The position numbers and the translations under genes are program-made. The notes under the pieces were generated by a model, which saw nothing but the letters and a program-made list of their open reading frames with translations, was not told where the DNA came from and ran no database searches. A stretch of DNA of 64,000 nucleotides from Paramacrobiotus metropolitanus (taxonomy: Eukaryota; Tardigrada; Eutardigrada; Parachela; Macrobiotidae), in assembly GCF_019649055.1 (NCBI RefSeq), contig NW_026570358.1, positions 124,001 through 188,000 on the forward strand, given 5' to 3'. Shown one piece after another: positions 10,460 to 47,130 of this stretch. Position 1 is the stretch's first letter. Every line of letters starts with the position of its first letter.

Positions 10460-12117
10460 AGATTTGGTCTAAACTGAAATGTTGCGGCTGAGCAGGCGCT
10501 TCTTGTAGTCGAACGGTATCGTTTGTACATAAATCTTTTATAATGTTTCGATTCAGATTATGCGTATTTTGCTGGCTGGTGCAGAGCACTTTGAAAATGC
10601 GACGTCAGTTTACACACTGGCATTTGCGTACCTCTGAAAAGGGAAACATTTATTACTAATTTCGAATCTAATGAAAAAGCTAGTAATTGGCGCTACAAGT
10701 CTGCAACCTAGAGCAAAGACAGTAATTAAATTTTAATAAATGCGACGCGGCAATTTTGTACAGTAAAATACGTACGTAATTTTCTTTGAGGTAAGTATAA
10801 AATGGTCAAGACATGCGGACTTGGCGTTACATTTTTATTTCTTCTTACGGAAATGTAACAACATGCAACACTTTTGTAAAGAGACGTTCAGTTAAAGGAC
10901 TTGCTTCATCTCAAACAAACATTAAGGAGAAACAAGGATATGAAGATGGATGGTGGATAATAAGTAGATGCATCAAGGAAATTAGAAAAGACTATATACC
11001 TGTATAATGCATGTGACGGCACTATGGCCGAGATACGTATAACAAACTAAAAACCCAATAGGATAGGGTTCGCACATTGCTGCTTTAAGTTTTCTGCAAT
11101 TTTCTTCACAAAATCACAGAATCGGTTTTTAATCATGCGGTATAAAGCCGTTTCCGATATTAATACGATCAAAATGGCAGCAGCTCCATAACCGTTAGAG
11201 ACTACCCTATCGAATTTCCTCATGGAACTGGTTGGCCGTGCTGAAATTAACGCTGTTTTTCATTTTAATTCTCTTGTGCGACGCAGTTAGTATATCTTAC
11301 TGACATTAATTTTATTTTGCACGGTGAACTCCCTGCTTCGTTTCCGGTTACTTGATGAATGTGGCCGGTATCAATTTTCTCCTTCTATATCTCAACTGTT
11401 AGACTTTTCAGCACGATCGTCGCCGCAAACTGTGCAGAAGATTTAATACAAAAGGAAAGGTTTGACTAATATTTAACCAAAACAAAGACATGTGCCACTA
11501 CCTAGACCTCCTGGTTAGAACATAGCACCTCCATTGCGTATAACCCCGTATAATTACGTGTACGTACATATGACATACGTTTCACCTTGGACGCACTTGA
11601 AGGCAGTTTACTTTTATTCGAATCTTTTTAATTAAAAACTGGTTCTACGAACCAATGTCATTATGGCTGCTTCCTTGTAATAAACGGCGACCAAGATAAT
11701 CACTCGCGTTACAGGGCCGGAGCAAGCGGAAATGGAACTTTCTCAAAATTTGCGCTAACCATCTTACGTGATTATAGCGTTACGAAACTGCAAGGATCGT
11801 CGGCGGCGCCGCGGCAGACATGTAGATGAACAACTGATTAGGCTTAGCTAGTTCCCCAACGGTCGTAATAAGAGATCCTAATTTGGCCCAAAATGATTAG
11901 GAAATATTTCTGTCTGGTTCAAATTTGGCTGATTAATTCAGTGCATTAATATAACATCGATGTGGCGATGTCGAATACCGTTAGCTGTAGCCAAATAGAT
12001 ATATAGAAAGGCATCAATAGCCCAGTCGATCACATTAATTTTGCATTTGCTTTAGAGACTAATCGTAAAAGTCTTAACTGGTAGTTGTTATTTACCATCG
12101 CGTTCACGGATCATAAA
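10460..12117. other. noncoding interval
   Basis: AT-rich DNA between the frizzled-related gene and the GPCR pair. No supported exon, repeat family or RNA was found. It should contain the 3' end of the former and the promoter of the latter. Confidence 0.5.
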
Positions 12118-13274
12118 ATGATGCAGAGTAATTTTAGCACAAACTTTTCTTTTTCATTAGCTTTTTTGCAAAATCGCACGGCTGATGTACAGATAGATAC
12201 GAGCGGGAGTGACCTTTCCTATTTCGAATGGAACCTGTCAGCGATTTTCAAATGTGCGGTATTTATTCTGACATTAGTTCTCAACGCAACCGTCTTGATA
12301 GCCTTTGTCACGCACCGCGAACTGCGTACGCCATTTAACGTATATTTAATAAATTTGGTCGGCATCAACATATTGTTTACCGGAATCGCCCTGCCATTCG
12401 GTACGATCTACGCCGGGCAACCAGACTGGGATCCCGGCTGGACCGGCTGCAACATCTACATCTACATATTATACCCGTTAGGTTCGTGGCAGTTGTGGTC
12501 GCAGGCGCTGATTAATGATTACTATCAACCGCGTCTGGGCTGTTTTCCATCCACTGTCCTATCGTCGAATTCACAGTTACCGGCTCGCGATTACTCTTTG
12601 TGTTAGCGTATGGCTGATTGTCCATATTGTCGGTATTTCCTTCATCGCAGTCGATGCTGCATGGTACCGAAGACCCGGTGCAATGTATTGTGCGCTAAAC
12701 GAAGACGCTCAACCAGTCACTGCTCGTGCTTATGAGATTTTTATGATCGATTTGACATTAGTTATTATCTGGACCGCCTATCCATTACTCTTTTACAAAT
12801 TATGGAAACGATTTAGAAGAAAAAGCATAGTTTCGAGCAGCCAGATGACGGATACAACGGTTTCAAAGTCGGAGCACGGAGGAAGGTCAGCGATGGGGAA
12901 TGAACCGAACCCGAACAGTGTTCATTTCACGGCAAATCCCGCAGAGATTTCCGTAAAAGATTGTGATCAAGGGTACGACTGGTTTAAGTACAAACAAATC
13001 CGGTGTCTCGGACGCAACCAAGCATCGTGGGAGGAACTCCAAACCTTTGCTAGTGCTATCTGTGCTGACCATTAGCGCCTCCATCTTTTATACGCCGTTC
13101 TTCGCGGTTTTCTTTGTTTCCGCGTGGATAACAACTGTCCCGTCAGTGATGTGGTTTAAAATTGGAGCTTGGTTGTACGAAATGCAGCCCTTGCTGAACC
13201 CGGTCTTCTTGGTAATTGACATTGACAATTTATGGGCAGCCGTTTTCAGGATGCCCATACCTCGAAAACCTTAG
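12118..13274 (+). pseudogene. broken class A-like GPCR, tandem copy of the 14.3 kb gene
   Basis: Three successive reading frames together match the intact neighbour downstream: N terminus and TM1-3 from 12118, then a frame starting within TM3 (ITINRVWAVFHPLSYR) and a third from the end of loop 3 (RNSKPLLVLSVLTISAS, ending PIPRKP). The first break is a 7-base insertion in CTGATTAATGATTACTATC, a near-tandem repeat of GATTA that interrupts the ALITINR motif. The second is a net +1 change between about 12950 and 13020, perhaps an extra A in GTAAAAG. Both add bases, unlike the single-base losses seen in other genes of this window, so a true pseudogene is favoured; polymorphism or assembly error remains possible. 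As in the partner, the DRY site reads INR. Confidence 0.7.
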
Positions 13275-18388: not shown

Positions 18389-21300
18389 TCAGAGAACGTT
18401 CACGGCCACGCCCGTCGTATCAATAGCCTCTTTAAATGTAATCCAGAATGTCTTCACCATACCTTTGCCCTAAGTGACACCATGAGATTTCAGACCAGAA
18501 AAATTTGGTCTCAGTAACAACAAAACTGATCCATACCTTAACAGGAATCTCGCCTCGTGGTTCACATTTCAATTTGTTTGAGCAGTCCAGTAAATCTCGG
18601 GATGAATCGCTGGATTGAATACGGCAAGCTGTTAGAGAATATTGATTAGACAACATAGTAACAGGATTCCCAAAGTAAAGGGGCGCCGCTTACGCATGGA
18701 TGTCGAGGTCATCCGCGATGCCATATTGACCGTATCGCCAAATCTACAATGATACATTAATTATTACAACTGTAGCTTTGCAACTGCCTTGCCGTCGCTC
18801 GATTTACAAACAGTATCTCTTCATGCGCAATCCAACTAATCCGGCGGCCACTTGACCTAGCACACAGAACATTGTCCTGACCATATCAACACACGACTTG
18901 ATGACATAATATGTCATCAGTACACTATACAGATATACCCATGTACCAGAATGAAACCCGATTTGCAGTTGCAAGGTGTGAGAAGCAAATGTATCGGTCA
19001 ACGTTCGAGATAAAGCCGCGCAGCAAAGAACACCAATTTCCTCCGCATGGTTCTTCTCGCTGCGTACTGGTAAACCGCTGGCTAACTGCAATAAGCGTTT
19101 AAAAAGAGTGTTACGTTCAACTTACGCAAAGCTTCGAGTGTCAGCGTCATCATATTTATGACTAGAAGTACGAGTTGCTATCATCTGAAAAATGTGAAAG
19201 AATTTTTACCATGTAACTATCAGCGATGGTTTCCACTTTATATACATCGTATTCGTTGATGAGGCGATCAAAAAGCGTGAAGAACTCATTGAGCAAGGCG
19301 ACACAATCAAGAGGCGACAAATCAGCTATGATCTGTCCAAACTGGTTAATACACGTAAACGCTATGGTAGCGCACTGGAAGATTTCTGGTTCTGTGCTTT
19401 CACCACGAATCAAGGCATCTACCACCGACCTGCAACGATATTGCCGTCTGAATATCCTTCATAAATGATACTGTATACAAGAGAAACGTACGAAGGTAGC
19501 ATATTCCTTAGTAAATCTTCCGACCGCTTCTTCTCGGCTCGAAGATTCTGCGTCCTCTCGGCAACTTGGTCCTCCAGATCTTCCGCATAATTGCTTAATT
19601 TCTTCAGAATAAAGTCTACAAAATTCCCTCCTTTTAACCGGAAATGCCTCTTAAACACTTCTTGAACTTGTGAAATTTTTGGTCGATCCGATGGAGATTC
19701 CGCCCAGCATTTTTGCATCAGGGAAATGATCTCCGGTCGGAAGGTGGATGCGTCTTCGGTCTCTCGCACAACCGGTCGGCACGGCACTTGTGCGCCGTGC
19801 TGGACAGATTCTATTACTTTCGCAGCAAACAGTCCGCCACTATCCGTGTCTTGCAGATCAAACGGGCGTGTAGCAAAAATAACTTCATGGATTATTATCC
19901 CGAAAGCGTACACATCGGATTCTTGTGTGAGCAAAGCACCAGCCGAGCGCAGAACTTCGGGAGCGGTCCAAAGCAATCGGTTGAACAAATGCTGATTAAG
20001 GGATTCCTTAACGTCCGTGGTCTGCTGCGATGGCCAGCCAAAGTCAGTTAATTTTATCGTTAACTGGTTGGTGACCATACAGTTCGGGCTTTTTAACGAC
20101 CGGTGAGCTTTAACGCTTGAAGCGTGAATGTAAGAAAGACCCTGGGAATCATATGCCGAGGTTACCGGCAAACTTCGCACAAATTAGTTTTCATTCAAAC
20201 CACTGACCTGGACAATATCAGTGAGGAAAGCGATTTTTAGCAGACTATCGAGAAATGATGTCCTGTAGTTGATGAGCTGATTTACGGACCCTTTTTGAAA
20301 ATGTTCGGTTACGATGGCGAGCTCACTCTTCTCTAGTATCACGCCAATGAAATTTGCTATATTGGAGTGCTTGATCGATTTGCGCTGAAAAATGAAAATG
20401 ACTGAGCCTATTTGATATTCCCAAAAGTATCTGTAAAGACCGTATGGCTGTAAGAGAAACCACGAACCTGGTTGGTGCATCTTATAAAGTCTGCCCATGA
20501 GCGTTGAGCTGATGTAAAAGCTGGACCGTCGATTACCCGGCACCATACCTTATTGTCGCGATACAAGCACACTTTGTGGCACGTTTCGTTTCCTTTCGCG
20601 GAGTACGAGATCTTGCAAGAAAATCAAATCTTGCGCTAATATTGTGGGTCATTATGAGACTTGCAGTGCTACAGTTAGCATGGAAGCGATTAAAGCAGCA
20701 GAAGAAGGAACCTTACTCGTGGCATGTCCGACGACATAGTTTTCATTGAAAACTGCCTTTTGACCTCCGTGGCAGGTATCAGCCAGTCAACACTATGCAG
20801 CCGCTGATATCTGAAATGTTGTTCAAAGGTTTTAGAATTTATGAAACGATCGCCATTTTGTCACGTTATTTGTCTGCTTGCCGTTTCAGCCGAAGAAATC
20901 CAGCAAGTGCTAACAGCAAAACCACCGAACACGACGAACACAAAGTCACAGCGGCAATGAGTAGAAGATTGGATCCTGTGAATTCACGACTATTACGTTT
21001 CTGTACGAAACAATTTGCCAGAAGCAGTGGTGCAGTTGGTAAACTTATCCAGAGCACCACTGAATCCTATGGCAGTTTACCGATTAGGCACTTTCGATCC
21101 TCGCCGGTATAGCCACACTTTGGACGATTCCGTGGAAGTGTCCCATTCAGTGGCCAGCTGTCATTCATAATTTTGAACAAACGCCCCGCACTTCTGTTCA
21201 GCTTCAGAAACACCTACGATTTACAAATAACGTAATACTGCTTTTAACCAGCTGGTTCGCTGTTTAGCCGATAAACACCCGATTCCTGCGCTGCTGTTTC

Positions 21301-23745
21301 CGCTAATTGCTCATCACATAACCACCTGGAAGTCTTCGCTTTCGTCCACGATGCCTTTTATCCCGTACTCATTGTCTAAGTCGCCGTTGGCGTTGATGCG
21401 GTATCTGCCCAGTTCCGTATCGTAAGTGCGGTTCCACATGGCTCTTCTCAAGTCGGTACCGAGGATCGGGTTAACGCGATTCAGAAAATTGTCACTGACC
21501 AGCGTCTGTCACGAATCAGGATACATGTATTTAATGACCACAATATGCTTTAGAAGTTAAATTGCAACAGTAAAATGCGTTTCAAAAACTACCTGCGCCA
21601 AAACTTGGATCCCAAGATAGTAACTGCTGGCATACATCGTGACCTTGAGTTAGTGCAAAACAACATGATTGTAAAAATAGGTTCATACATAACAACATGA
21701 CTATAATAAGTAGAGCAACCAATCGGTCAATACCGGTGATAGACTAAGCTTTATTGCACCGCAGGAGAAAAAGCAATCAATGGTAACGTCGTACGCGTTG
21801 ATATTATTTCATGTACACGACGTACCTCTTCATCCCAGTCATATTTCAAACCATACGATTCCAATGTTCGGTTCTTAATTCTCTCATTTAAATTATTAGC
21901 TGCCGGATTTTTATTCGTTGGACAGGACACAAACAGCAGGTAGCGGTAAATAATGCGAACAATCTGATGCGGAAAAATTAGAATGCGTAATTTAAATAAT
22001 TTAGGATAAGAGGCGATCCCAATAGTAATTCAGGCAATTTACTTCGTCATCTGGGTCGCCAAACCTCCATGTCGCTCTCCCGATAAACGGTGACGCAAAA
22101 GGAAGCACAGCAACGAACGCCTGTCAATAATAAATCTGTCAATATTCCGGCAATAATGCCGTGCAGACCATTAGATTAAAATTTAGTATCGAGAGTGGCA
22201 TAGCAATTATTGTACTAGAAAAGTACTTGCATATTCTCCGTTGGCAAATCCTAATCGGTGAGCAGCAAGCTAAAAAAATTGATTTTCCTGCGTTTATTGA
22301 AGCTATATGTTGGTGCTTAGGTATTATAATGCTTGGCTTTTGTTAAATACTCGTACATACCAGAAGTTTGCGTAATCGAGAAGCGTGTGTGCTGATGAAG
22401 AAAACTGCAACAACAAACCGTCGCTTAAAAACACTTTGACGGTGATGGAAATTTCCTGGTATACAACCTTCAAAAAAATGCTGCAAAGTAAGGAGGGAGT
22501 TCATACGGGAAATATAAATGGACAACAGTTCATCAAGCCAAGATGCTTCCTTAAGTAAAAACCGGATGCCGGGTTCCCGGTACAATGCTGGCCGATAGGC
22601 ATACACTTTCCAATAATCACTTCAGTAAAAATCTTAGCATTGTAAAGTTTGAAGTATTGCTTACTGCGGCTTTTCGCCGATGCTTCCAAGAGGTATCTCC
22701 GGTAATCGGGATTGATTTTAAAGTTGTACTTCAGAAGAGTCATTGAAAACGGGGCTCTGATGAGAACTGTCGGTAAAAGTTTGCAAATCAGGAGAAAAGT
22801 GGCGAATTCTGTGGCGCCATCGTCGCAGATCATAGCAACGTTGGTCCAGTTGTAATAAAGAAACAGGCCGATAACCGAATCTATTAGGCCTTGTTGTTGA
22901 TACGGAGCCAAACGGAAAAGTGTCGAAAATCGGATTTTATTGTCCATAACACTATCCGTACCACCGCTGGTAGCGTAAAAAAACAAGCAACAAGATTATT
23001 TTAATTCGCTTTGGGAGCAACCTTCTTCGGCGTTATCGATGTCAGGATAAGTCAACATCAATTTATTACGCTGACGTATGAGAATGTTTGGCTATGTATT
23101 GCACCTGCGGCTGCATTCAGTTACTTACGATGTTATAACGGGAACATTCCATTCTGAAAAAAAGGTACCATACGTTATCGAATTATTGAATATTAGGAAA
23201 ACTTAATGAAAGATCCTCTGGACGAAGATGTCAGAAAGTTTCACCTCGTCCGATATCTCCCAGCTGTGTTACGGGGTCACTGCAAGCTGAAAATAACGTA
23301 TGGCTTATAAGATGCAACATTTATCAAATATTATAAAACTAAATACCATGAATAAGATAAACAGCCGATCTACAGTTAATGAACAGTTTAGTTCAGTTCA
23401 CAGTCTACGTAGTTACTTTACCTGGTGCCAGCAAGACAAAAAGATCCTTGTCCGACCGTTTCCAAGGTTTAGTGAAAAATAATTGGACGCATATGGAATG
23501 ACATCCACCACTACGTCTGCACATGTTTTAAGATTGGTCTTATTCCAGCTGATTAGCGTAAAGGTTAAATTAAGCCTGCGATATTGCATATTCATATCCT
23601 CCACGGCTAAATCGATGGGAGCGCCTACATAGTCAAGGCTGGACGGAAGAGAAGTGGCAGATTGTTGGGACAAGAGAAGGACATTGCGTTGCAAAGATGG
23701 AGCGAAAGAAATTAAAAGAATTAGCGAAATAGCTATCAAGGCCAT
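18389..23745 (-). CDS. receptor guanylate cyclase (natriuretic peptide receptor type)
   Basis: Twenty-one minus-strand exons: 23422-23745, 23245-23286, 23129-23153, 22665-22966, 22361-22455, 22043-22120, 21826-21963, 21593-21643, 21326-21505, 21081-21213, 20882-20975, 20717-20810, 20468-20611, 20208-20384, 19492-20141, 19210-19429, 18947-19085, 18808-18856, 18694-18743, 18537-18628, 18389-18469. About 1052 residues. Order: signal peptide, ANF ligand-binding region, one TM (NLLLIAAVTLCSSCSVVLLL), kinase-homology domain (HRSLKSPNC in place of HRD, DFGW kept), dimerisation coiled coil (EDQVAERTQNLRAEKKR), class III cyclase. Family role: peptide-triggered GTP to cGMP conversion. The cyclase keeps YKVETIADSYM, RYCLFGD and VNMASRM, but the first metal Asp (SDIVGFT) is Cys (TCINQFG). 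Exon 1 needs one extra T at the run 23475-23479 to continue into FVLLAPACSDPV. Exon 3 is 25 bases; intron 11 has a GC donor. Confidence 0.88.
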
Positions 23746-27050: not shown

Positions 27051-30000
27051 ATGGACGCTATTCGTCCATTTTTAATACTGGCTATACTAATATGCCAATA
27101 CTGGTCAGCGGAATGCTCACCCTTGTCAACAACAACAGCGGACAGAAACCACCGAACAACAAATCGATCATTACCCCACCTGTACAGCAATCCAAATATG
27201 CGGTCTGACGTCGACGTATGCATCGCCGAAATGCAGGACGAATGGACATGCTCGTGCAGCTCATCCGAATCCAACTGTTGTTGCTGTTGGGCTATGGTGA
27301 TCGATGAATACGATCTGCACAGTGAGGACGGCATGACATCACAACAGTTTCTCAACGCCGCACTGGACTTTCATAATCGACAAAACTGTCGTCCGCTGCA
27401 AGCAGGACTATCGGACAACGAAATCCAGTTTTACCAAGAACATATTCAAGCTTTTTTTACAGTACCGTCAGCATCTGCCCAAGTAGCTATCGATTCCAAT
27501 CCACTTCTGCCAAATCAGTTTTGGAGCGGTGTTATGGAAACAATGGTCCGCTCCCGGTCCCGCTGGTCAGAATCCCGCATCAGCGATTTAACAGTAAAAC
27601 AAACGACCATGTTTGTGCACCAGGTTGTCGAGAAACAACGGTGTGACATTTTAGCGGCAGACGGAATAGCCTCTTTTCCTGTGTACAAAGCCATTAATAA
27701 TTTACCGAACAACATATCGGTAATTGCTAATGATTGTGGTCTTTTGTCAAAGGAGGATTCCGTCTGTGTTAGAGTAGATGAGACCGCTCTGGAGGAAATG
27801 TGCCGCCAAGATACAACTTTGTCCTCATGGTACTGGATACAGATCCTCAGTCCAAAATATCTCGACCACACAAGCTTTGCTGCAAACATACAAATCGACG
27901 CCGTAGACATTGAATCCATCATTCGAATTGTTCGAGTGTTCGGCTGGGTCGTTGGCCTGTTATCCCCTTTTGCCAATTTTACTGGCATTTCCAATGAATA
28001 TTTCTTAACAGCCGAGTTTTCACCTTTTGCACCGGTGGGTTGTCAATTAGGCTAAGCGATTCCATGTTTAGCTTAAAAGTGGTTTTGCTGATGTTTTGCA
28101 GGTCAAGGACAAATCTGACGCTAGCCATTTCATGTGCATCATGTTGCCGCGGGGCGAAAGTCACTGGAGTGATCGACACTGTCAGCAACCGGCAGACATA
28201 GATGCTCAGAACCGGGTCACATGTCGCTGTCGAAACTTTGGAATGCTGACGTTTATCGAAGCACGCATCAGCACAACAACAACACTGTCTTCGACAACAG
28301 GGAGTTTCAGTACTCTGCTGGAGGATGCAACCACCACTGTTATTACAGAGGCATCCAGCTCACCAAACTGGGAAGGAGCTACCAACGCCACAACAACCAC
28401 AACAGAAGCGCAATCTATAGCATCAGATTTCTCAACAACAGTTCTTTCGCTCGAGACAGACATGGATACGACTAGTTCCAACACAACCGCTGCCCTTTCT
28501 TTAACACCGTATACAAGTGGCCCCTCGAGCACGAATCTCCCAGCTAATGTCACTGGACTATCGTTAGATAATGCAACAGAAGCAGACTTGACAGCTTTGA
28601 CTGCAACAGATATCGCAACAACGGATTTTTCAACTGGGATAGACGATGATACGACCATTTCCGATACAACCGCAACAGTTGTTTCAACGACCGATACAAC
28701 TATTCCATCAGACACAAATTTTGCAGTCACTGAAACCGAACCGCCGCTAGGTAATATAACAGAACCGGAATCCACAACTTTAACCACAACAGATTTCGGA
28801 ACAACTGACCTCTCGCCTAATATCGACACTGCCGCCACGGTTCCCAATACCACCGTAACATTTTCTTCCACGCTGTCTACAAACGATGATCTGAGCACTG
28901 ATTCCGCAGCTACCGTCACCGGAACCCCAGATTTCTTTGATTTTGGAACAAATAGTACCGACACTTTCTATCAGACGGATTCGCTGACAGAGACCACGGT
29001 CTCTATTATACACCTTAACCTCACCAGCGAATTTACCGCAGTACACCTAACTGAAAGTGTTAACACCACGGTTTCCGTATTCAACAGCCCTCCAAGCACG
29101 ACACCGCTCCCCGACAATCCATCCGACATCCTGGATTATTACGCTAACACTACCAACATCCAGAATCCGGAAGATTGGAGTCGAGCTTTGAATGCCACTT
29201 TAGACGCAGTTAACACTTTATCGCAGGGCTCTCAAATGAGGTTTCACGATGTGGAAAGGTCTATCGAGATCGTGAACACTTATGTGCAAAGACGGCGCAG
29301 CAGCAACAGCAACAGTTCCGAGAACTGTCAACGACCTTCCATAGCACCGGAAATACATTTTAATGCAACTTCGGAAACACTTACTTGTTCGCTAATTGAA
29401 GATGACTTTCGGATCGATGCCGCTCATGCCGTGGTTAAAATTTGTGACCGATTACTTCATTCCAAAAACAGCCCTCCGGATTCTGTTCAGAGCGGAAATG
29501 ATGCCGCTGTGCTGCTTTTGGACACGTTGGAAAATCTGTATCTAACGATGCCACCAAGTGAACACCCGTTGGAAATTAATTTCGGAAAAATATCCTTGTG
29601 CTTAAATATATTCAAAGTGAATTCTACCAGCAACTTTCAATCGATTTCTGAAAAGCTGAAAACAGTGGCAACCGTCCATCCTGTTGGGTCAAATCAAATA
29701 AAAAGTGCCGATTTCTCTCGCCGAACTACCAACAGCACTTTTACTTCGCTTCTGCAGCTAAACGATGCCGTGCTGCAGAAGGAATTTGAGACTCTTGGTA
29801 AGTTGCTGAGGTCAGATAAAAAGATTGCAGTCATGACTGAATTAAACCTATAGCTCCAATGGTTTTTAGTCGCACCCATTCCACCGAGTGAGAACCGAAT
29901 TTTCGCCTTTCAGTTGTTGGCGCTACCGAATCCTTCTTTTGCAAGATTCAAACATCCGTCTGAAATGCCGGTGCGCAACGGCCGACGAAGTGGATTGGTG

Positions 30001-32051
30001 CTAGTTTCGGCGTCTATGCGAAACGTCAGCGGGCCGTACAAGGACATGGTAACAATTACGCACAAAGCGGACAGTCTTTTTCAGGTAGCTTTACTTTTTG
30101 AGACTCTTTAGTACTCTAGATGCAATGTGGGAATGTCGCCAGAATGCTTATAATTTGGAAAGCTTCTAGGGTCGTTTAACTGGTCGGAGTGCACATCACT
30201 GTGTATTTCTGGATTACTCGGTTGAAGGTGAAGAGACTACTTCCATGTGGTCGACTGAAGGCTGCCATCTTATGCGGAAGAGTGCAACATGGAGCGAAGG
30301 GACAACCGCTGAATGTGTATGCGATCATCTTACCCCGTTTACCATGCTTCTTGATTTGTGTGGTAGTCTCCTCAGCGAGGACGATGCGGATGACGAGCCT
30401 ATGTATTTAACCCTGGAACCGGCGATTGTAACCCTGTGCAGTTTAATTGTGTCAATTATATGTTGCTTCTTCATTGCTTGCCATCTACTGTAAGTGAGCC
30501 GCTTCAATTCGAAGTAACTGCGAGAGGTATTTAGCGAGATATTTCTTCGATAGATGGGCCGTATGGAATAACGTCATTGGATTCACTCCCAGAAAATTCA
30601 CTCGACTAAATTTTGTAGTCGGCATTTGTCTGGCCCATATGTCGTTTCTCTTGAGCCATACCGCAATGGAACGTGACGACGAAATTGGCTGCTTATTAGT
30701 GGCGATTGTATCGCACTGGCTTATGCTGGTGGTGTTTGCCTGGATGGGAATTGAAGGGTACTGGATGATCTTGCCAGTGTTTAAATTTTGGACGGCAATA
30801 TACGAGAACACACGGGTGCCCGGTGATACATATGGAGGCGTTCGGTGGAAGGTGTGGTGCATTGCTTGGTGTAAGCTGTCTAAAGGTCGGGACTCGGTTC
30901 CGTCTCCTTCGGTGCACTTTAATCGTTTTCTGGTTTGTAGTGCTTCCATTTTCTTTTCCGTTCTTCGGGATCCTCAGTCACATCCCATTCGAGGCTATGA
31001 AGCAAGCGTTTGATGGCCATGCTTATGCAGTGGAAGAACGATGGTTAGTGTATCCTAAATCCGTACAATTCCGAGGCAAAAATTGCAACAGTTATAAATG
31101 ACCTACGATCTGCAACTTGCAGTCATCTAATTAGAACAATATACTTGCCGGGAACCTATGATAATCAAAGTTCGTATCTTATATAGTATGTTTTATTATT
31201 TAATACCTAAGGGTATCTTCAAGTGTAGGTGTTGGCTTGATCATGAGCACACCGCTTTCGTGGCTTGGACCTTCCTTGGACCGGTTACCATAATTTGTGT
31301 CAGCAACATTGTGCTGTACATTTTGTACTTGCGTCGTAAGTTCATTGCTTTTATGTACGAATGTTTCCCGGTATAAAGCCTCTTAAGTATAAATAAGTAA
31401 TGTTGATCATTAATTTGCAGATACTTTACAAAATGAGAAAGAACTGCAGCCCTCACGAAGAGATGGACCTAAGCGGTTTAAGATAATCAGTCTGATATGT
31501 ACCAGCGGATTACTTGGTGGCACGTGGCTTTTGGGATACTTCCTGCTTTTCGTATGCGATATGAGCGACAACGTCAAAATGGCTCTGGGATGCGTGTACA
31601 TCGTACTGAGTGCTGCACAAGGAGTTTTCATTGTGGTGGTGCACCTCAGGGAAATGAACGTACGAAGCACGGCTGGACTTGCCAAGAAACGTTTACGTAT
31701 CTTCCGAAGAGGTACATTATAGTAGCTACTGATACTTCGTATGGATACACTTCGTCCCATATTTTTCAAGTGTTTACTATTCAGTTATCCTTGTTGATTC
31801 CTGCGTCGCGAAATGCACATGATTTCTTTTTAGGACAAAATAAAACAAGGGACTCGATCGCCGTACGATATTGGAGAGAGTTGACAACAACACCTGCCGT
31901 GTCCGGCGGACCTGGTCGATGGGCAGGTGCATTGGTTTTAACGGATGACAATACGAATGTCTCGTCCAGCATAAATGACGAAACATCCGAAGACACAACT
32001 TCCGAAGCTCTGACGATTTCGCGTATTGTTGAGGGAATTTCTGACGCTTAA
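27051..32051 (+). CDS. adhesion-family GPCR with two GPS-like modules
   Basis: Nine exons: 27051-28034, 28102-29797, 29870-30084, 30170-30489, 30554-30815, 30886-31043, 31229-31335, 31421-31711, 31834-32051; 1416 residues, all phases agreeing. Order: signal peptide (MDAIRPFLILAILICQ); Cys-rich N terminus; a GAIN-like region ending near residues 340-385 in a first GPS-like motif (CIMLPRGESHWSDRHC, then TCRCRNFGMLTF); a Ser/Thr-rich mucin stalk of roughly 270 residues; a second GAIN-like region; the canonical GPS (WSTEGCHLM, then ECVCDHLTPFTML); seven TMs (TM6 near GGTWLLGYF, TM7 near SAAQGVFIVV); a Thr/Ser-rich cytoplasmic tail. Adhesion GPCRs self-cleave at HL/T and signal through a tethered agonist; the second motif keeps HLT, the first has NFG. 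The donor of exon 5 was chosen among several in-phase options. Ligand unknown. Confidence 0.88.
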
Positions 32052-32454: not shown

Positions 32455-35400
32455 CTATCTTAACCAGGCGGCAAGGACTGCGAGCAAAAAGAGCACACTG
32501 GACCCGTAGACACCTGAAAAGTGGAACTATACATAACTTTGTGGTACAAGCAGTTACGTGGTAGCTGGTAACCTGCCCAAATCACTTACGATTTCCGTGA
32601 TTTCCGTCGCATTTTAATGCCTCTCCCGTCCATTTTCCTTCGGCTGAGCATACCAGAGTTGTACTGCCAGATATCTGAGAAATAGTATCGTTTCGGCAGG
32701 CTAACTGTACACTCTCGCCGCTGATAAATGAGGAGTTGGATGCGATGACCACCGATTCATCCAGGGCAGGGTAGCCGCAACTGGTTACTACTCGTAGACA
32801 AACGTAAACCCGTATGAGAAAGTAGCAGCATAAGATGCGATCGTGTACATTGTAAATAACGCTGCAGTGTTTAAATTACCAACGGTGATGGAGGTGTTGA
32901 AGTCCTCTTCCACAATTGTCATGAACGTCTTTGTCGTTTGACCCATACGCAACAAGCCGGTAGCCGCGACATCGAACATGCACTCTGCATTTGCACCGCA
33001 GAGATTTTCTGCTTCCCGTTTGAGCGTTGCGTTTTCAATTTCGGGTGCAGCAAATAACGGGCGAAATAAAACGTCGTTGACGGACTCGTACGTCTCCGGC
33101 ACTTGGTACTGGAACAGTGATTCGGCTTTCTGTATCCGCCCTGCAAGTTTAAATTGATTATGCTGAATAGTAAGGGTAGTAAAGAATTTGGTAAAGTCGT
33201 AGATGCTTTGCATATGCAGTACATGATTCTCCAAATGTGAAAATCTCTTCGGCGGTAGGAGTTTGAGGAATCGCCACAGTCTGGCCGCGAGGTATAAGGT
33301 CGTCCGCTGTATCGTCATTCCAGCGGCCGAGTAACCCAGCGCTTTGTGCGTTTTTGTAGGTGCTCGGCAAGGAAACTTGGAACTGAACGACCAAGTCAAC
33401 TTCCTCGATCTCCACTAGAATTCCCAGTGCCAACTGAGCACTGACTTTTTTAAGCGCGGACGTATTCAGGCGATCCAGGTGTATTATGGAATCTAGACGG
33501 TTACGGCAATGATATAGGTAGGTACTTTATTTTGATACACTTTAGCTCACCTACACTTGTTGAAATTTTACGTACCGTCTAGAATAATCAGCGTCGAAAC
33601 AGCATCCAGATCAATGTTTTCGCGGTTTAAGTACAAGTTCAGTCCTTCTCCTCGCGAACTGATACTAGCCTGAATGGTCGTGTTGCCAACGCGAAGCGCT
33701 AAACCTGACCACACTGTGGCCATTAATTCTGCTCCTACAGGAAAGCATTTTAATACCATGATCGCAGGATAGAAGACTGCCGGCTTCCAGGTTTGTTCAG
33801 TTACCTTGTTCGGATTTCGCTTTGGCTGTGCGACCTTGCACGGTTATCACGTTAGGGATCTCCAACAAAACGTATTCGCCCAATCCGTTGAAAGTGTAGC
33901 GGAAGCCATCGTAGGTCTGAATGTGCGGATCTCCGAAACCGACGGCTACAGACAAAACAAGCAATTGCCTTAATACTGCTCGCGGTATAACTGAAAATCT
34001 CGTTTCACGCGTGACTCAAGCGACTAGAAAATGCCACGTACCACTAAGCTTACACCACAACTTACTCTTACCAGAAGTTACCACTCGTGCCAACTCTAAT
34101 GAGTGAAGCAAAAAATGTATATAGGAATCCCGGCACTTGGAAAAACTGTCACTTCTGTCGCTCGATATTTAAATTCTTTTGACCGGTTTTGCCATATACG
34201 TAATATTTAGGTTATTCGTATCAGGATGACAAGTAGTGTTATTACCTGGTCGTGGCGGCTCATAGCATCGTGATGAACCACCTTTCCTGACATCTCGGAA
34301 CAAACGGCAGCTATCGCTATTCCAGTTGGCGTTGTTGCAACACTTTTTCAGCGGAAGTCTATCCGTAATAGCCTCCTCCAGCCTCTGCGCCATCCAGACT
34401 AAACCGGAACTAACGTCATCGACCTCCCGATCTTGGACAAGCAGCTTCACCCGCCCGCCGCCCGGGTGCATGTTAGCCAGAATGAGGTTAGCATTGTCAG
34501 CATAACAACACTGCTGCTGATACTTCCGCGATACAGTGGGGGCCACAACGCATAGAACGGAGGCCGGGTTCTCGGCACAAAAACTAGTGGGCCACAAAGT
34601 ACTATCCGCTGTTTGAATACGGTTACAGGCGCTGATGCTGGTTAGGGGGTTCTCTACGGAAAACCGGGCACGGTCCAAGCGAGCCTGGTTGGCATTCGCT
34701 GGGCACGCTGGGAAGTCAGCGCAATCCGAAGAGTTGTATCTGCAAAAAGAGCACAAACGCTACCATTTCTACCCAAATCGACATAACTTCTTAAACACAT
34801 TGTTACTGACAATTAAAGGGATCTAATTTTTTATGGAAACAAGTATACCCTATCAGGTCGTATGGCGACCTTTACCTCAACGTCCACCGTTCGGCATCCG
34901 CCCAGCATCGACAAAAATCAGTATCAGCTGTACATTTCAGAATGGAGTCAATCAGTACATGGCGTTCAGGAAACCCTGACAAATATTTGCTCCATTGATC
35001 TTGGCTGAGTAGTGTTTGGGAACCTTTGTAAAAAGTCAGTGCCTGAAGTGCACGTCGGCCAAACAGCGGCTGCAGTGGTCGGCGAACGGTATAAGATAGG
35101 ATCATTCCATATTCAGTGTGTTCATAATCATCATTGTTCCGACTGGACTGCTGGGGCAGTCGTTGAAGAAAATCTATATCGAACATCGGCGTCCAGAGGG
35201 ATACCGGAAGCGACTGGTTCCCATGCGTAATGCCGGTGCTGTTCACCAGCGCGTTACGAACAGTGTCTTTCATAATACGAAGAGATCCTCGCAAAAAGAT
35301 GTAACGTTCGTTCGGGAACTCTGGCTGAAAGAGGTTGATGGACGTTTTCAGTGTGATGTCCATTCGGCCCGTATTGATGACTGATGGGACAAGGGGAATC

Positions 35401-37435
35401 ACCATAGTGCGGACATGCTGCGTTACATCAGAACCACTGCAATTAATCAGTCGTTTGATTGCAGAATGAAGGACCGCCAGAGTTCATTGTTTCTGTATAT
35501 GTTTCTGGACGAATTTGGCTAACATAATTCATATATCTGGCAGTAAAGGCCGCTTATCAGGTCAAGTAAACCGTTAATTCCAAATTTTATGTGTTCCCTT
35601 ATCGCATTAATTTATTCTCATCAAATCATTGGCTTATCTTTAGACATGTACCTTAGATACCATCCCACCAAATCAACCGCAACCTTGGAGTTGTTTTTTA
35701 GAACTACTAAATCGGCATCAATATCGTACGGATTCCACTGAAATCGCAACTTTACTTCCGGCAGCGACTCCCATAAATGCTGGTCGATAAGCCTGGCAGA
35801 GTACGTTGTCGAATCTGCATGTATTATAGTATAATTATTTCAGATTACTATGTTATGGCACTTATGGCCGCCCGGTACATATTTGCTTAACAGGTTTCAG
35901 CGGTGCGATCGACATAAAAGCAAGTGATATTAATTCTCTGAACACTAAATACTAACATAGAAACGGAAGATAGGTAGCTGTAAGCAGAAGCCTGCAGTTT
36001 TTTCTTACCAAATGTATACGTGGATGCATAAGGAAAGGTCATCCCATTGTCCACCGAGATGCGTAGAGCCACTACGCCGATCTCACCCGGTGTGGGAGCC
36101 ACACACCGCACGGATGTCGGACCATGTTGCTGGCCGGGAAGGCGATCACCGCCAAATTGACAAATAATTTGATTGATGGGTGTGCCAGCATCAAAGCACA
36201 CTCCGCTGACGATGACTTCGTTGCCACCCAGAACGGAACCGTATTTTGGACTAACGGAAATCGCATGGCTGTCTATAGAAGGTGACAAAACAATCAACAC
36301 TTTTTGCCAACTCATGCCAGCGCATTCGCCGTTGCCTTACTGGATGGATCGCTGCAGTCCACGCCGGTGATGGTGTTGGCATCGAGCCGAAAAATCCAGC
36401 GGCCCGGGACGCCGGTATTGGATTCCGTCACAACCTTTCCCAAGTTTGCTGTTCCGGAGCCGTTGAGTTCTTTGTAATACAGGCCATCGAATCGATTAAA
36501 GCCAGCTAGAAATTAGCCAGATTTGAGTGGCTTCTTGCTGATATGGCAACCAATAGTTGGGTACCCATCGGTAGGAAAAAGGGATTTTCAAACGTTGTTT
36601 TTACCAATCGCGTATTTGTCGTTATGCGAGATCCACTCAAGTTTGTCATAGTTGAAAATTGAAAAGGAATAGCGTCCATCGGTTGCCAGTATGATTTGGA
36701 ACGTATTGGCTGGATATTCCTAGATATAGCGGTTGTCATTCATGTAATGGAGAAAGGTTGTTATCACTTACCGGAGGACATCTCGTACTAAATCGAACGA
36801 CACGGGAAAACGTAAGGATAAACGCCCACTGCGCACGGAACGATCGGAAACTTGCGTCGTACTCTCTGCAAAACGTTTTGATGAGCTAAATCTTGAAGTG
36901 TAATCTGCTCGTACGTTATTGGCGTTTGTATTACTCTCTACCGTATTTGATTTGACAATGCTAGAAGCAGATCTGAATTCTGGTTGGCTATTTCGCGATA
37001 GAAGACGTTGTTGTTTAAATCGCCTCCTGGAAGAGTGTTGCAGTCGTGGCGAGGATCAATGTCGGACCAGAATGCGGACAGCAGCGAACTGTCGTTCATG
37101 GGAAAACTGGTCGGTGTGAACGCTGTAAAGGGCTGATTAAAGCTGATGTAGCCATTCGTTCCTAACTACAACCACAGTCAACCTTTGATTTTGCTGTAGA
37201 ACATTAAATTTTCCTCTTGAAAAATCCGCTAAAATGTGCATCTGCCTACGTATAACTGGCTGTAGCTGTGCTCCAAAAAGACAAACGGATGAGAAATGGC
37301 AAGTCCCAGGGAAATGTCATCGGCTTTCTCTAGGAGACGGTCACCAACGGCCGTGCCGTACGGCTGTAATGGAGCAGCATGAGAATATGTAAGAGCTATA
37401 AGCAATACGTATAAGGCGTATATGGAGATCGCCAT
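32455..37435 (-). CDS. Mesh-like NIDO-IPT-AMOP-VWD-sushi protein
   Basis: Fifteen minus-strand exons: 37250-37435, 36942-37165, 36772-36865, 36605-36719, 36341-36505, 36009-36272, 35652-35814, 34876-35436, 34246-34739, 33805-33945, 33576-33734, 33223-33492, 32880-33140, 32590-32790, 32455-32513; 1118 residues. Order: signal peptide; NIDO domain ([38 protein letters not shown]); IPT/TIG domain ([17 protein letters not shown]); AMOP region ([34 protein letters not shown]); VWD ([33 protein letters not shown]); sushi domain ([12 protein letters not shown] to KWTGEALKC). This is the domain set of insect Mesh, a smooth septate junction protein of gut and Malpighian tubules; an epithelial adhesion role is inferred. 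After the sushi domain only [18 protein letters not shown] remains before the stop, so there is no cytoplasmic tail; see findings. No frame breaks. Confidence 0.88.
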
Positions 37436-44175: not shown

Positions 44176-45198
44176 TCACAGACGCAGCCACGACCTCATG
44201 CTCCCCCAGATATTCGTTCTAAAGCATCCCACGACGATCATCCTCATGGTGGGAATTTTCAGAGTATAGACAATGGGATTGATGAGGCTATTTCCGTAGA
44301 ACAAATACAAAGAGACGGTATACCATCGCAGCAACGAAAACGTATTCCCGTAAACCAACATGACCAAGCTGATAAGCGCACAAGGGAAATTCACAGCCAG
44401 GAAAACTGCGCATAACAGCATCATTGTTGTCCCTTGCTTGGTGGTTCGTCTATGGCTTTGTCGGTTCGTTCCACTTTTCTCTTTCTCATCCTTTACTTGG
44501 TGGGATTCTTCGAGGGCCATTACGATACGTTTCCTCCGCTGTCTTAACGTCATATAAACCAGCACATATATAATGACAACGACAACAGAAGGCAGTATGT
44601 TTTCTGTTAAAATCGCCAAGTCACCTAACCACTGTATTTGAAAGAACTCAGTCATGCACTGCCCCATAGGTGACAAACGCTGACCAGTAAAAAGATCCAC
44701 AAACTGGATAGTACCGTAAAAACCAATGTTAACGACCCAGGTCAATACGATCTTCTGGATAACGTATCGTCCACTTTCTTCGGCGGCAAACTGTGCGCCG
44801 TGTGTAACCATTTTGTAGCGATGGCGAGCAATGAGCATCACGGTTGTTGCGGTCTCCGCAGAACATATCCAGTCGATGATCTTACATACGCGACAGAAGG
44901 CAAAAGGAGCTGGCCAGCATCCCAACAAATCCAGTGTAAGGCGAGTCGGCATGGAAAAGCTCCCGAGCAAAAGGTCACAAAAAGCGAGGTTTATGAAATA
45001 GAAATGTTGAGGAGTTTGAAGCTCTTTTCGCCGAATGAAGGTTAAAATGACGAAAACATTACACACTGCAGTAAGAATAGATTGCGGTATGCCAATTATT
45101 GCAATTACAATGATTTCGGGTTTAGCGAAGTAAAACACTGGATGGCTACAATACGCCGCATCAGAAACATTTGGATAATCAGTCCCATTCGTATCCAT
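44176..45198 (-). CDS. class A (rhodopsin-like) GPCR, single exon
   Basis: 340 residues from the first ATG (MDTNGTDYPNVSDAAYC); the frame extends upstream only with a GTG start. N-glycosylation sites (NGT, NVS) lie in the short N terminus. TM1 follows EIIVIAIIGIPQ; TM2 contains NLAFCDLLLGS with the conserved Asp; TM3 ends LIARHRYKMV (HRY in place of DRY); loop 3 is long and basic (RQRRKRIVMALEESHQ); TM6 lacks CWxP and reads AVFLAVNFPCALIS; TM7 ends NSLINPIVYTLK, a good NPxxY. TM2-TM3 resemble amine-receptor-like class A members, but the TM3 ligand Asp is not evident, so no ligand is assigned. It probably signals through G proteins. Unlike the 12-15 kb pair it keeps most class A landmarks and is not a close relative. 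Confidence 0.82.
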   Translation of the reverse strand: MDTNGTDYPNVSDAAYCSHPVFYFAKPEIIVIAIIGIPQSILTAVCNVFVILTFIRRKELQTPQHFYFINLAFCDLLLGSFSMPTRLTLDLLGCWPAPFAFCRVCKIIDWICSAETATTVMLIARHRYKMVTHGAQFAAEESGRYVIQKIVLTWVVNIGFYGTIQFVDLFTGQRLSPMGQCMTEFFQIQWLGDLAILTENILPSVVVVIIYVLVYMTLRQRRKRIVMALEESHQVKDEKEKSGTNRQSHRRTTKQGTTMMLLCAVFLAVNFPCALISLVMLVYGNTFSLLRWYTVSLYLFYGNSLINPIVYTLKIPTMRMIVVGCFRTNIWGSMRSWLRL

Positions 45199-47130
45199 AT
45201 TAAGAGCATCAGAAATAGATTTTCTACCAATTTTCACGTTCAATACGGGCACTGGTTAAAATAACAGTCAGGATTACAATGGACGACAAGTCGTACAAGG
45301 ATTACAAGGATACGTTATACAACCTATTAGCAGAAGAGGCGCTTAAAGTTTCATCCGGTTAACGGAAGAAAAAACATCTTCACATCATGTCGTTTTGCGG
45401 CTATCTCAACCGTTACTTGCATTATTGCATTATCCACCTAAACAGTAAGGCACCATTTAAAAAGGAATAGGATACGACCACCGAAGTGCTACAGTTAAGC
45501 TCACAGATAAAGTGGAGGCACTGAGAGAAAGGATCTGACTGGATATTCTGGATCTGACTGACGCAGTGGGACGGTTTTAGCAAGTAGCATCTAGAGAAAT
45601 GAGACATTAAGCCAGCTTTTGTAGCGTTGTAATCGCCAGGATCATGGTACTATTTGTGTTGTTTGACGGGAGTTGGAATATGCAAAAAGCTTCATTTCTC
45701 AGAGACGTCAGACATTTGTATTTGGTATTACACATCCAAGGTGCCATCAGAACCGGGATTACCTATGTACGTAGTTGACTTAGCTGACAACGCAGTTGGT
45801 ATCATTGTTGAACGAAGGTTGCGCTGGTTCGGCATTGTAAAGTACGAGGTGCTAATAGTTGACTGCTTTGGGCTTCTGGGACACCTGACGTTTATCGGAG
45901 GATTGTAGAACCGTAATGAATCTGTAATAAAAGTACCTCCGCCAGATTCTCGCATCGATTTTCCTGTAATACACTACAGTGACTACACTGCACAGTGTGC
46001 ACACTTTCAAACGTTAATAGCCGTTTTGTGACGTACTCGTATAACTATGGTTAAGGCAGTACATTTAGTTACTGTATATCAGGAAATAAATCAGACACGT
46101 CTGAATCGACTCCTGCTAAAACAGTTCTACAGGTGCAGAATAATATCTTTAACGTTAAATATAGAAGTATAATTAATTGTGTATTAGGCACTTACGTTAT
46201 TTACGTCGTTACGACCGTCACTTACGTTACGTTACGTACAAAGGACGCTCCAAAAGTAAGTTTCCCTATTTTGTATCTCCCGGCTTGAAAGCTTTTAGTT
46301 CTTATGAACTATATTTTTAGAAACGTCCTTCATTAACGAAACAAAATAAAATATAACTCTACCTAATTACAGTCAAATGGAGAAGAACTGCCGAGAAAGC
46401 CGTTCAAGGTTTCGACACTTTGCCACGGGTTTTACCCTGACAGTTTTTGTAATTTTTCTGTCTTCTTGCTCACTTTTCGGAAAGCACCAAATACCATCAG
46501 ATAAGGAATTCTTTTCTGTCTAGCGCTAATAAGTCCGGCTGCACATATGCGAGATTTGTAGAATCGTATTTGAGTACTCGTACTGTAATTAAGTACTGAC
46601 TGGCTAATGGCTACCGCTCCTACGGTTTTCAAGTTTATTATTGATTTTTTCAAGAAGGTTAGCCAAAACAAAATCCATAGCAGGCGGGTAGAACCGTGCT
46701 GGTCAATAGGGTCAGTTGCCAGTCATAGCTTTTTCGTTTCATAACGACAACAAGGTCACGACAAGTTTCGATGCCTTGATATTTCCTGCAAAACAAAAAA
46801 ACAATTGTTAAGGCCATGGATCCCATGTTTCGTTGTTCGGATTACTGCTTCCATGACTCATGGCAGAAAGTGGCTGAGTCCGGGACAGGTACTTGGCAAA
46901 TGCACTTGGTTAGTTAGTTTAATAATTAAAAATCCTATTAATTAATTAAATTTCGTTCGTTGCAAATTCACAATCATTACCGGTACGAGTACGTCCGCAG
47001 GAGTACGTACATTGTATTTTGCCCAGACACGACAAAACTGCGATATGCACACGGACGAAAGATCGTGCGTTCCCAGTTTCCCGGGTGGTGTTTCCACTCC
47101 AGGAGCGTTTAATCCTTGTTTAAGTTTAAT
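45199..47130. other. noncoding interval
   Basis: Promoter side of the minus-strand GPCR, then AT-rich DNA with TTACGTTACG-type low complexity near 46.2 kb. A stretch at 46.23-46.33 kb (GGACGCTCCAAAAGTAAG) recalls the ends of mariner elements, but no partner end or transposase was found. Confidence 0.45.

What the first reader, a model, noticed from the sequence alone, without database searches (positions are those of the whole stretch)
27051..32051. Adhesion GPCR with two GPS-like modules separated by a mucin stalk
The sequence shows a C..W..C..C.C pattern (CIMLPRGESHWSDRHC, TCRCRNFGMLTF) about 600 residues upstream of the canonical GPS (ECVCDHLTPF). Adhesion GPCRs normally carry one GAIN-GPS directly before TM1. 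The first module has NFG where cleavage needs HLT/S, so it may be a fossil copy that folds but does not cleave, placed at the far end of a Ser/Thr-rich rod. This would be an unusual ectodomain plan.
Basis: partly seen in the sequence, partly recalled or inferred. Interest (0 to 1): 0.72.

Follow-up and report, generated by a model that had tools for sequence, protein, structure and literature searches.

The report
Receptor with spare, uncleavable GPS module
A tardigrade-like animal carries two related adhesion receptors that have, besides the usual self-cutting site next to the membrane, a second look-alike of that site at the far tip which has lost the three residues needed for cutting but is otherwise well kept.

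Summary
Window 27051-32051 (+) reads as one 9-exon gene for a 1416-residue adhesion GPCR: N-terminal signal-like stretch, Cys-rich module ending in a GPS-like motif (C340, W350, C355, C369, C371), 283-residue Ser/Thr stalk, GPS with HLT, seven TM segments. A paralogue on contig C11 repeats this order with the same exon phases; its first module is 35% identical, keeps all 16 module cysteines, and its stalk has 76 residues. The first motif is related to GPS motifs: a profile of the two copies puts true GPS exons in 11 of the top 12 places among 5786 scored reading frames, and 0 of 200 column shuffles match it, even with Cys and Trp fixed. The hits at the top are sister receptors of one family; the receptors' own second GPS ranks low. 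Both copies lack three residues where HLT sits, so the known cleavage chemistry cannot work there. Not shown: that the ~280 residues before the motif have the GAIN fold (no profile signal; AlphaFold2 without relatives unusable). The module was found only in these two genes; no second GPS was found in the fetched stretches of 14 sister genes. 'Fossil' is the wrong word. Best reading: a non-cleaving adhesive head on a stalk.

The parts
27051..27125 (+). start codon and signal-peptide-like N terminus (aa 1 to about 25)
   Evidence: read from the sequence; aligned with the N terminus of the C11 paralogue; no signal-peptide predictor was run
27201..28034 (+). exon 1 part of the first module (aa 51-328): C57, C67, C69, C76-C79, C113, C198, C229, C239, C251; fold unknown
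   Evidence: 33% identity to the C11 paralogue by search, 35% over the aligned module, all Cys kept; no PDB match up to E 10; Pfam gives only Spt46 under its cut-off, in the window copy alone
28035..28101 (+). intron 1, phase 0, 11 codons before the first Cys of the first GPS-like motif
28135..28254 (+). first GPS-like motif, C340-F379, without the HLT triplet
   Evidence: profile rank and shuffle tests; alignment
28270..29118 (+). Ser/Thr-rich stalk, 283 aa, 42% S+T, no Cys, 9 N-X-S/T sites
29119..30084 (+). region of the membrane-proximal GAIN domain before the GPS (aa 668-965), interrupted by intron 29798-29869
   Evidence: homologous in 14 sister genes plus the C11 paralogue; family profile reaches solved ADGRF1 chains, best stretch at the GPS end
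30170..30361 (+). canonical GPS with HLT (aa 966-1029); predicted cut between L1019 and T1020, T1020 codon at 30332-30334
   Evidence: Pfam GPS E 3.3e-8
30410..31711 (+). seven-transmembrane region (exons 4 to 8)
   Evidence: Pfam 7tm_2 E 4.2e-13; seven hydrophobic segments after merging overlaps
31834..32051 (+). last exon, cytoplasmic tail and stop codon

Best explanation
The gene encodes a stalked adhesion GPCR of a family expanded in this genome. The membrane-proximal GPS (HLT, then PFTMLLDL) is the working one: it should self-cleave and keep the tethered agonist. The distal module ends in a GPS relative that keeps four Cys, the Trp and an F-x-M-L stretch but lacks the catalytic triplet, so it stays in one piece. 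It most likely serves as a disulfide-locked binding head held away from the cell by a glycosylated stalk; pull on it would be passed down the stalk to the proximal GAIN, which releases the agonist. Shown: gene model, order, conservation in a paralogue, GPS relation of the first motif, missing triplet. Inferred: self-cleavage at the second site, disulfides, glycosylation, head function, force transmission.
For: Gene model and paralogue with same order and phases; 7tm_2 and GPS; rank and shuffle tests; local profile comparison with the family GAIN-GPS picks the GPS stretch alone, P 0.0012, probability 19%; three-residue gap over HLT in both copies; phase-0 intron 11 and 16 codons before the first motif, compared with a phase-0 AG exactly 10 codons before the first Cys in 16 of 29 GPS rows and 7 codons in 3 more; all 16 module Cys conserved; H-X-S/T chemistry and GAIN layout from passages of PMC13062082.
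Against: Pfam's GPS model misses the first motif. A profile of 23 canonical GPS gives only E 0.081 (C11 copy) and E 4.3 (window copy). The top hits of the rank test are sister receptors of one family, so not independent, and the two receptors' own second GPS rank only 119 and 292. Profile comparison of the first module with the pair's own second part: best match is at the GPS, but with probability 0.2% and E 0.31. The module body gives no signal against the family GAIN regions: 52 of 100 shuffles score as high in local mode, 7 of 100 in global mode. A PDB search with the first motif gives one poor hit, ornithodorin, E 0.039 with best stretch 3.3, and no GPCR. The intron distances are not identical, and phase-0 AG sites are common. 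No transcript, protein or ligand data.
Confidence: 0.7

Rival explanations
1. Only the GPS strands were copied: a GPS-like end was joined to a different, Cys-rich extracellular fold, so the module is not a GAIN domain, though it may still be a non-cleaving head.
For: No profile signal for the body; 12 module cysteines outside the GPS motif, none of which corresponds to an invariant Cys in the body of 8 aligned family GAIN regions; no PDB match.
Against: In solved receptors the agonist strand after the cut is a strand of the GAIN sandwich (passage of PMC13062082); that the whole GPS motif is the end of GAIN is recalled; so it is hard to see it fold alone. The unreliable single-sequence model shows helices first and strands later. 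Pfam gave no GAIN-domain match for any of 8 family GAIN regions either, so a miss says little.
Confidence: 0.35
2. The C..W..C..C.C pattern is convergence in a Cys-rich ectodomain and has nothing to do with GPS.
For: Weak scores in the reverse profile search, Pfam miss, only a non-GPCR hit in the PDB, low rank of the own second GPS.
Against: Rank test, and shuffles that keep every Cys and Trp in place fall short, 0 of 200; the C-to-W spacing equals that of the sister GPS motifs; phase-0 intron shortly upstream.
Confidence: 0.13
3. Exons 1-2 belong to another gene and were joined by the reader.
For: None found; no transcripts were available.
Against: Exon 2 is one open frame across motif 1, stalk and second GAIN start; the C11 paralogue has the same join.
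Confidence: 0.03

Closest known systems
Adhesion GPCRs (class B2), e.g. ADGRF1, ADGRL, ADGRG
   Same: 7tm_2 and GPS with HLT next to TM1; profile reaches solved chains of these receptors
   Different: a second GPS-like motif without the triplet far from the membrane
Cleavage-resistant GAIN domains (ADGRB2, ADGRB3)
   Same: GPS region kept without self-cleavage (passages of PMC13062082)
   Different: there it is the GPS of the receptor itself and the triplet is substituted (RLS in B3) or intact (B2), not missing
Sister receptors of this genome (contigs C6, C14, C60, C168, C42)
   Same: GAIN region, GPS and 7TM are homologous; phase-0 AG at the same distance before the GPS in most rows
   Different: no second GPS found in the fetched stretches of 14 genes; the N-terminal frames of two of them have no Pfam match

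Membership tests
Adhesion GPCR | 7tm_2 domain with seven TM segments | tested here: met
   E 4.2e-13, 2 of 2 paralogues match; seven hydrophobic segments after the GPS in both once overlaps are merged
Adhesion GPCR | GPS motif before TM1 with H-X-S/T | tested here: met
   Pfam GPS E 3.3e-8, HLT at 1018-1020
Adhesion GPCR | GAIN fold before TM1 | tested here: inconclusive
   family profile reaches solved ADGRF1 chains at 1.8e-10, best stretch over the GPS; no GAIN-domain match in Pfam for 8 of 8
Adhesion GPCR | self-cleavage into two fragments | not testable with these tools
   needs protein
GPS motif (first module) | match to Pfam PF01825 | tested here: not met
   no hit up to E 10; not among the 39 places
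GPS motif (first module) | homology to canonical GPS | tested here: met
   rank and shuffle tests; weak in the reverse direction
GPS motif (first module) | four Cys and Trp in order | tested here: met
   alignment
GPS motif (first module) | H-X-S/T at the cut | tested here: not met
   three-residue gap in both copies
GAIN domain (first module) | helical subdomain A and beta subdomain B | tested here: inconclusive
   AlphaFold2 on exon 1 alone, pLDDT 34; control on part of the second GAIN region, pLDDT 45; profile test negative

The most novel reading that the evidence does not exclude
A whole GAIN-GPS unit was duplicated into this receptor; the distal copy lost the catalytic triplet by a clean three-residue deletion, was kept as a permanently locked GAIN with its agonist-like strand buried, and became the adhesive head of a stalk, giving a two-GAIN receptor with one active and one locked switch.
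Probability: 0.4. Interest if true: 0.6.

Novelty: new variant of a known kind. Interest (0 to 1): 0.42.

Why it matters
If the first module is a GAIN domain, nature has separated the structural role of GAIN-GPS from its cutting role in one molecule, which would give a direct test of what the GAIN fold does apart from cleavage and agonist release. It would also show that a GPS can be kept far from the membrane.

Tried and rejected
Profile comparison of the first-module body with the family GAIN regions: no signal; with the pair's own second part: weak, GPS only. PDB search with the first module: nothing up to E 10; with the motif alone: ornithodorin only, rejected as a poor Cys-driven match. 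The Pfam Spt46 match of the window copy (E 7e-4, under its cut-off) is absent in the paralogue and rejected. AlphaFold2 on exon 1 and on the exon-2 GAIN part was too poor to search folds with, so no fold search was made. A first gene model had the acceptor of exon 5 at 30527; the paralogue moved it to 30554. A possible TM segment at aa 287-308 is not flagged in the paralogue's first module (the paralogue has one at 538-560, in its GAIN region) and was dropped. Papers: in searches I saw listings, and passages of PMC12716839, PMC13197933, PMC13062082, PMC4302439, PMC2246102, PMC6422961 and PMC5548486; none of what I saw reports two GAIN or two GPS units in one receptor. Subscription papers are not held, so this is no proof. 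Rows dropped: for the canonical GPS profile 6 of 29 rows (two first-module rows, L030, L031, two L024 pieces); for the GAIN alignment loci L022 and L025 (the GPS frame of L025 is identical to that of L014); A3 used 8 of the 16 sequences.

Full report
Source and gene. The window is G000:C138:124001-188000 of a 169.8 Mb genome in 533 contigs. The size fits the 170 Mbp reported for the tardigrade Paramacrobiotus metropolitanus (passage of PMC11191345); the species was not tested further. Nine exons join to one 1416-residue frame. Pfam finds 7tm_2 (E 4.2e-13) and one GPS (E 3.3e-8), the membrane-proximal one; seven hydrophobic segments follow it once overlapping ones are merged.

The paralogue. 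A search of the genome with aa 1-385 (E up to 10) finds only the window gene and C11 (33% identity, E 1.3e-34, plus the motif at E 5.3e-9); the reverse search with exon 1 of the C11 gene finds the same two places, and one with the C11 motif adds only C78 at E 0.19 (not followed). These searches score only the best candidates. The C11 gene reads in nine exons with the same phases and the same order: signal-like stretch, first module, Ser/Thr stretch (76 aa against 283), GAIN region, HLT GPS, 7TM. The first modules share 35% identity and the GAIN-GPS-7TM parts 54%. All 16 cysteines of the first module after the signal-like stretch are kept.

Is the first motif a GPS? A profile of the two first motifs was run without filters over 6724 distinct reading frames from the window and the fetched loci; 5786 non-self frames got a score. 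Canonical GPS exons stand at ranks 1-5, 7-12, 14 and below (23 of 23 scored; the weakest at rank 2710; Mann-Whitney p 5.6e-15). The top ones are sister receptors of one family and not independent; the GPS of other adhesion GPCRs stand at 25, 30, 51, 65, 1070 and 2710, and the pair's own second GPS at 119 (C11) and 292 (window). The mean score on the 23 canonical GPS is 9.88 bits; 200 column shuffles give mean -0.73 (max 4.67), and 200 shuffles with Cys and Trp columns fixed give mean 1.33 (max 7.45); none reaches 9.88. In the other direction a profile of the 23 canonical GPS is weak: E 0.081 for C11 and 4.3 for the window. Iterated search takes both in, but those rows then shape the profile. 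Pfam's GPS model gives nothing, and a PDB search with the motif gives only ornithodorin, poorly.

What it lacks. In the iterated alignment of 29 rows both first motifs have a gap of three residues between CxC and the Phe of the agonist strand: CHCRK---FGML and CRCRN---FGML against CxCDHLTPFSLL. Whether HLT or LTP is gone is a matter of alignment; either way the scissile bond and the nucleophile are missing. The known chemistry needs His as base and Thr or Ser as nucleophile (passage of PMC13062082). The C-to-W spacing of the first motif equals that of the C6-type sister receptors (10 residues), whereas the window's own second GPS carries an insertion there. With the ranks above, the first motif looks closer to the sister type than to its own neighbour; a tree was not made.

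Intron position. A phase-0 AG lies exactly 10 codons before the first GPS Cys in 16 of 29 GPS rows and 7 codons before it in 3 rows (L001, L002, L006). The printed list for L020 was cut before that point. The other 7 rows outside the two first motifs show no such site at 7 or 10 codons in the printed list; one of them (L021, 8960-9586) has lost the first Cys. In the gene models the intron before the first motif is phase 0 and lies 11 (window) and 16 (C11) codons upstream, so near but not identical. These are sites read from DNA; phase-0 AG occurs by chance too. A GTA donor follows the previous exon in 17 of 18 rows.

The body of the first module. Its fold is open. Profile comparison with the GAIN region of 16 family members: observed 13.46, 52 of 100 shuffles as high or higher (local), 7 of 100 (global). 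AlphaFold2 on exon 1 alone gave pLDDT 34, helices first and strands later; the control, the first part of the second GAIN region, gave 45, so single-sequence prediction cannot decide. Pfam gave no GAIN-domain match for any of 8 family members (that Pfam holds such a model is recalled), so its silence on the first module carries little weight.

Family. The GAIN-GPS-7TM part has relatives on C6 (a cluster between 2.78 and 2.96 Mb), C14, C60, C168, C42, C3 and C10. In the 14 sister genes whose three GAIN-GPS pieces were read, no second GPS of the same gene was found at E 0.01 in the fetched stretches of about 10 kb. Two stretches, L021 and L024, also hold the GPS of a neighbouring receptor; each of those is followed by its own 7TM match. 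In the 4.5 kb fetched for the C3 and C10 members the best other GPS hit has E 0.39. Two sister N-terminal frames gave no Pfam match up to E 1. Fetched stretches may not reach every gene start.

Mechanism. The second GPS should cut and carry the agonist; the first should not. A conserved, Cys-rich, uncleavable unit at the tip of a stalk whose length varies between paralogues (283 against 76) fits a binding head better than a switch. This step is inference.

Novelty. Five searches of open-licence papers (listings) and passages from a review, a structure paper and repertoire papers showed no receptor with two GAIN or two GPS units; one search for tardigrade adhesion GPCRs gave one unrelated paper. 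Rated a new variant of a known kind.

Noticed in passing
G000:C6 about 2783000-2960000 (loci L014-L024): A cluster of adhesion GPCR genes with very similar GPS exons (most read CTCDHLTPFSLLLTLCG), a local expansion of one receptor family; the GPS frames of L014 (C6) and L025 (C14) are identical.
   Followed up: partly
window 32585-36336, minus strand: Neighbouring, convergent gene or genes: frames with Sushi, MUC4-type C8-3, VWD, AMOP and IPT/TIG domains, a mucin-4-like set.
   Followed up: partly
window 12085-12603 (+) and 44179-45255 (-): Rhodopsin-type GPCR frames (7tm_1 E 1.5e-9 and 1.4e-30); the second is a single long open frame and, by chance it seems, ranks sixth in the GPS profile test.
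   Followed up: no
window 19422-20183 and 22504-22995, minus strand: A kinase-domain frame (E 1.2e-24) and an ANF_receptor frame under its cut-off (E 8.9e-5), perhaps one receptor gene.
   Followed up: no
G000:C3:3239001-3243500 (L032) and G000:C10:1302501-1307000 (L033): More distant sister receptors with GPS ending CACDHLTNIG; a C10 frame before the GPS is rich in Thr/Ser.
   Followed up: partly
window 27909-27974 (aa 287-308): Hydrophobic stretch in the first module of the window gene that is not flagged in the paralogue's first module.
   Followed up: no
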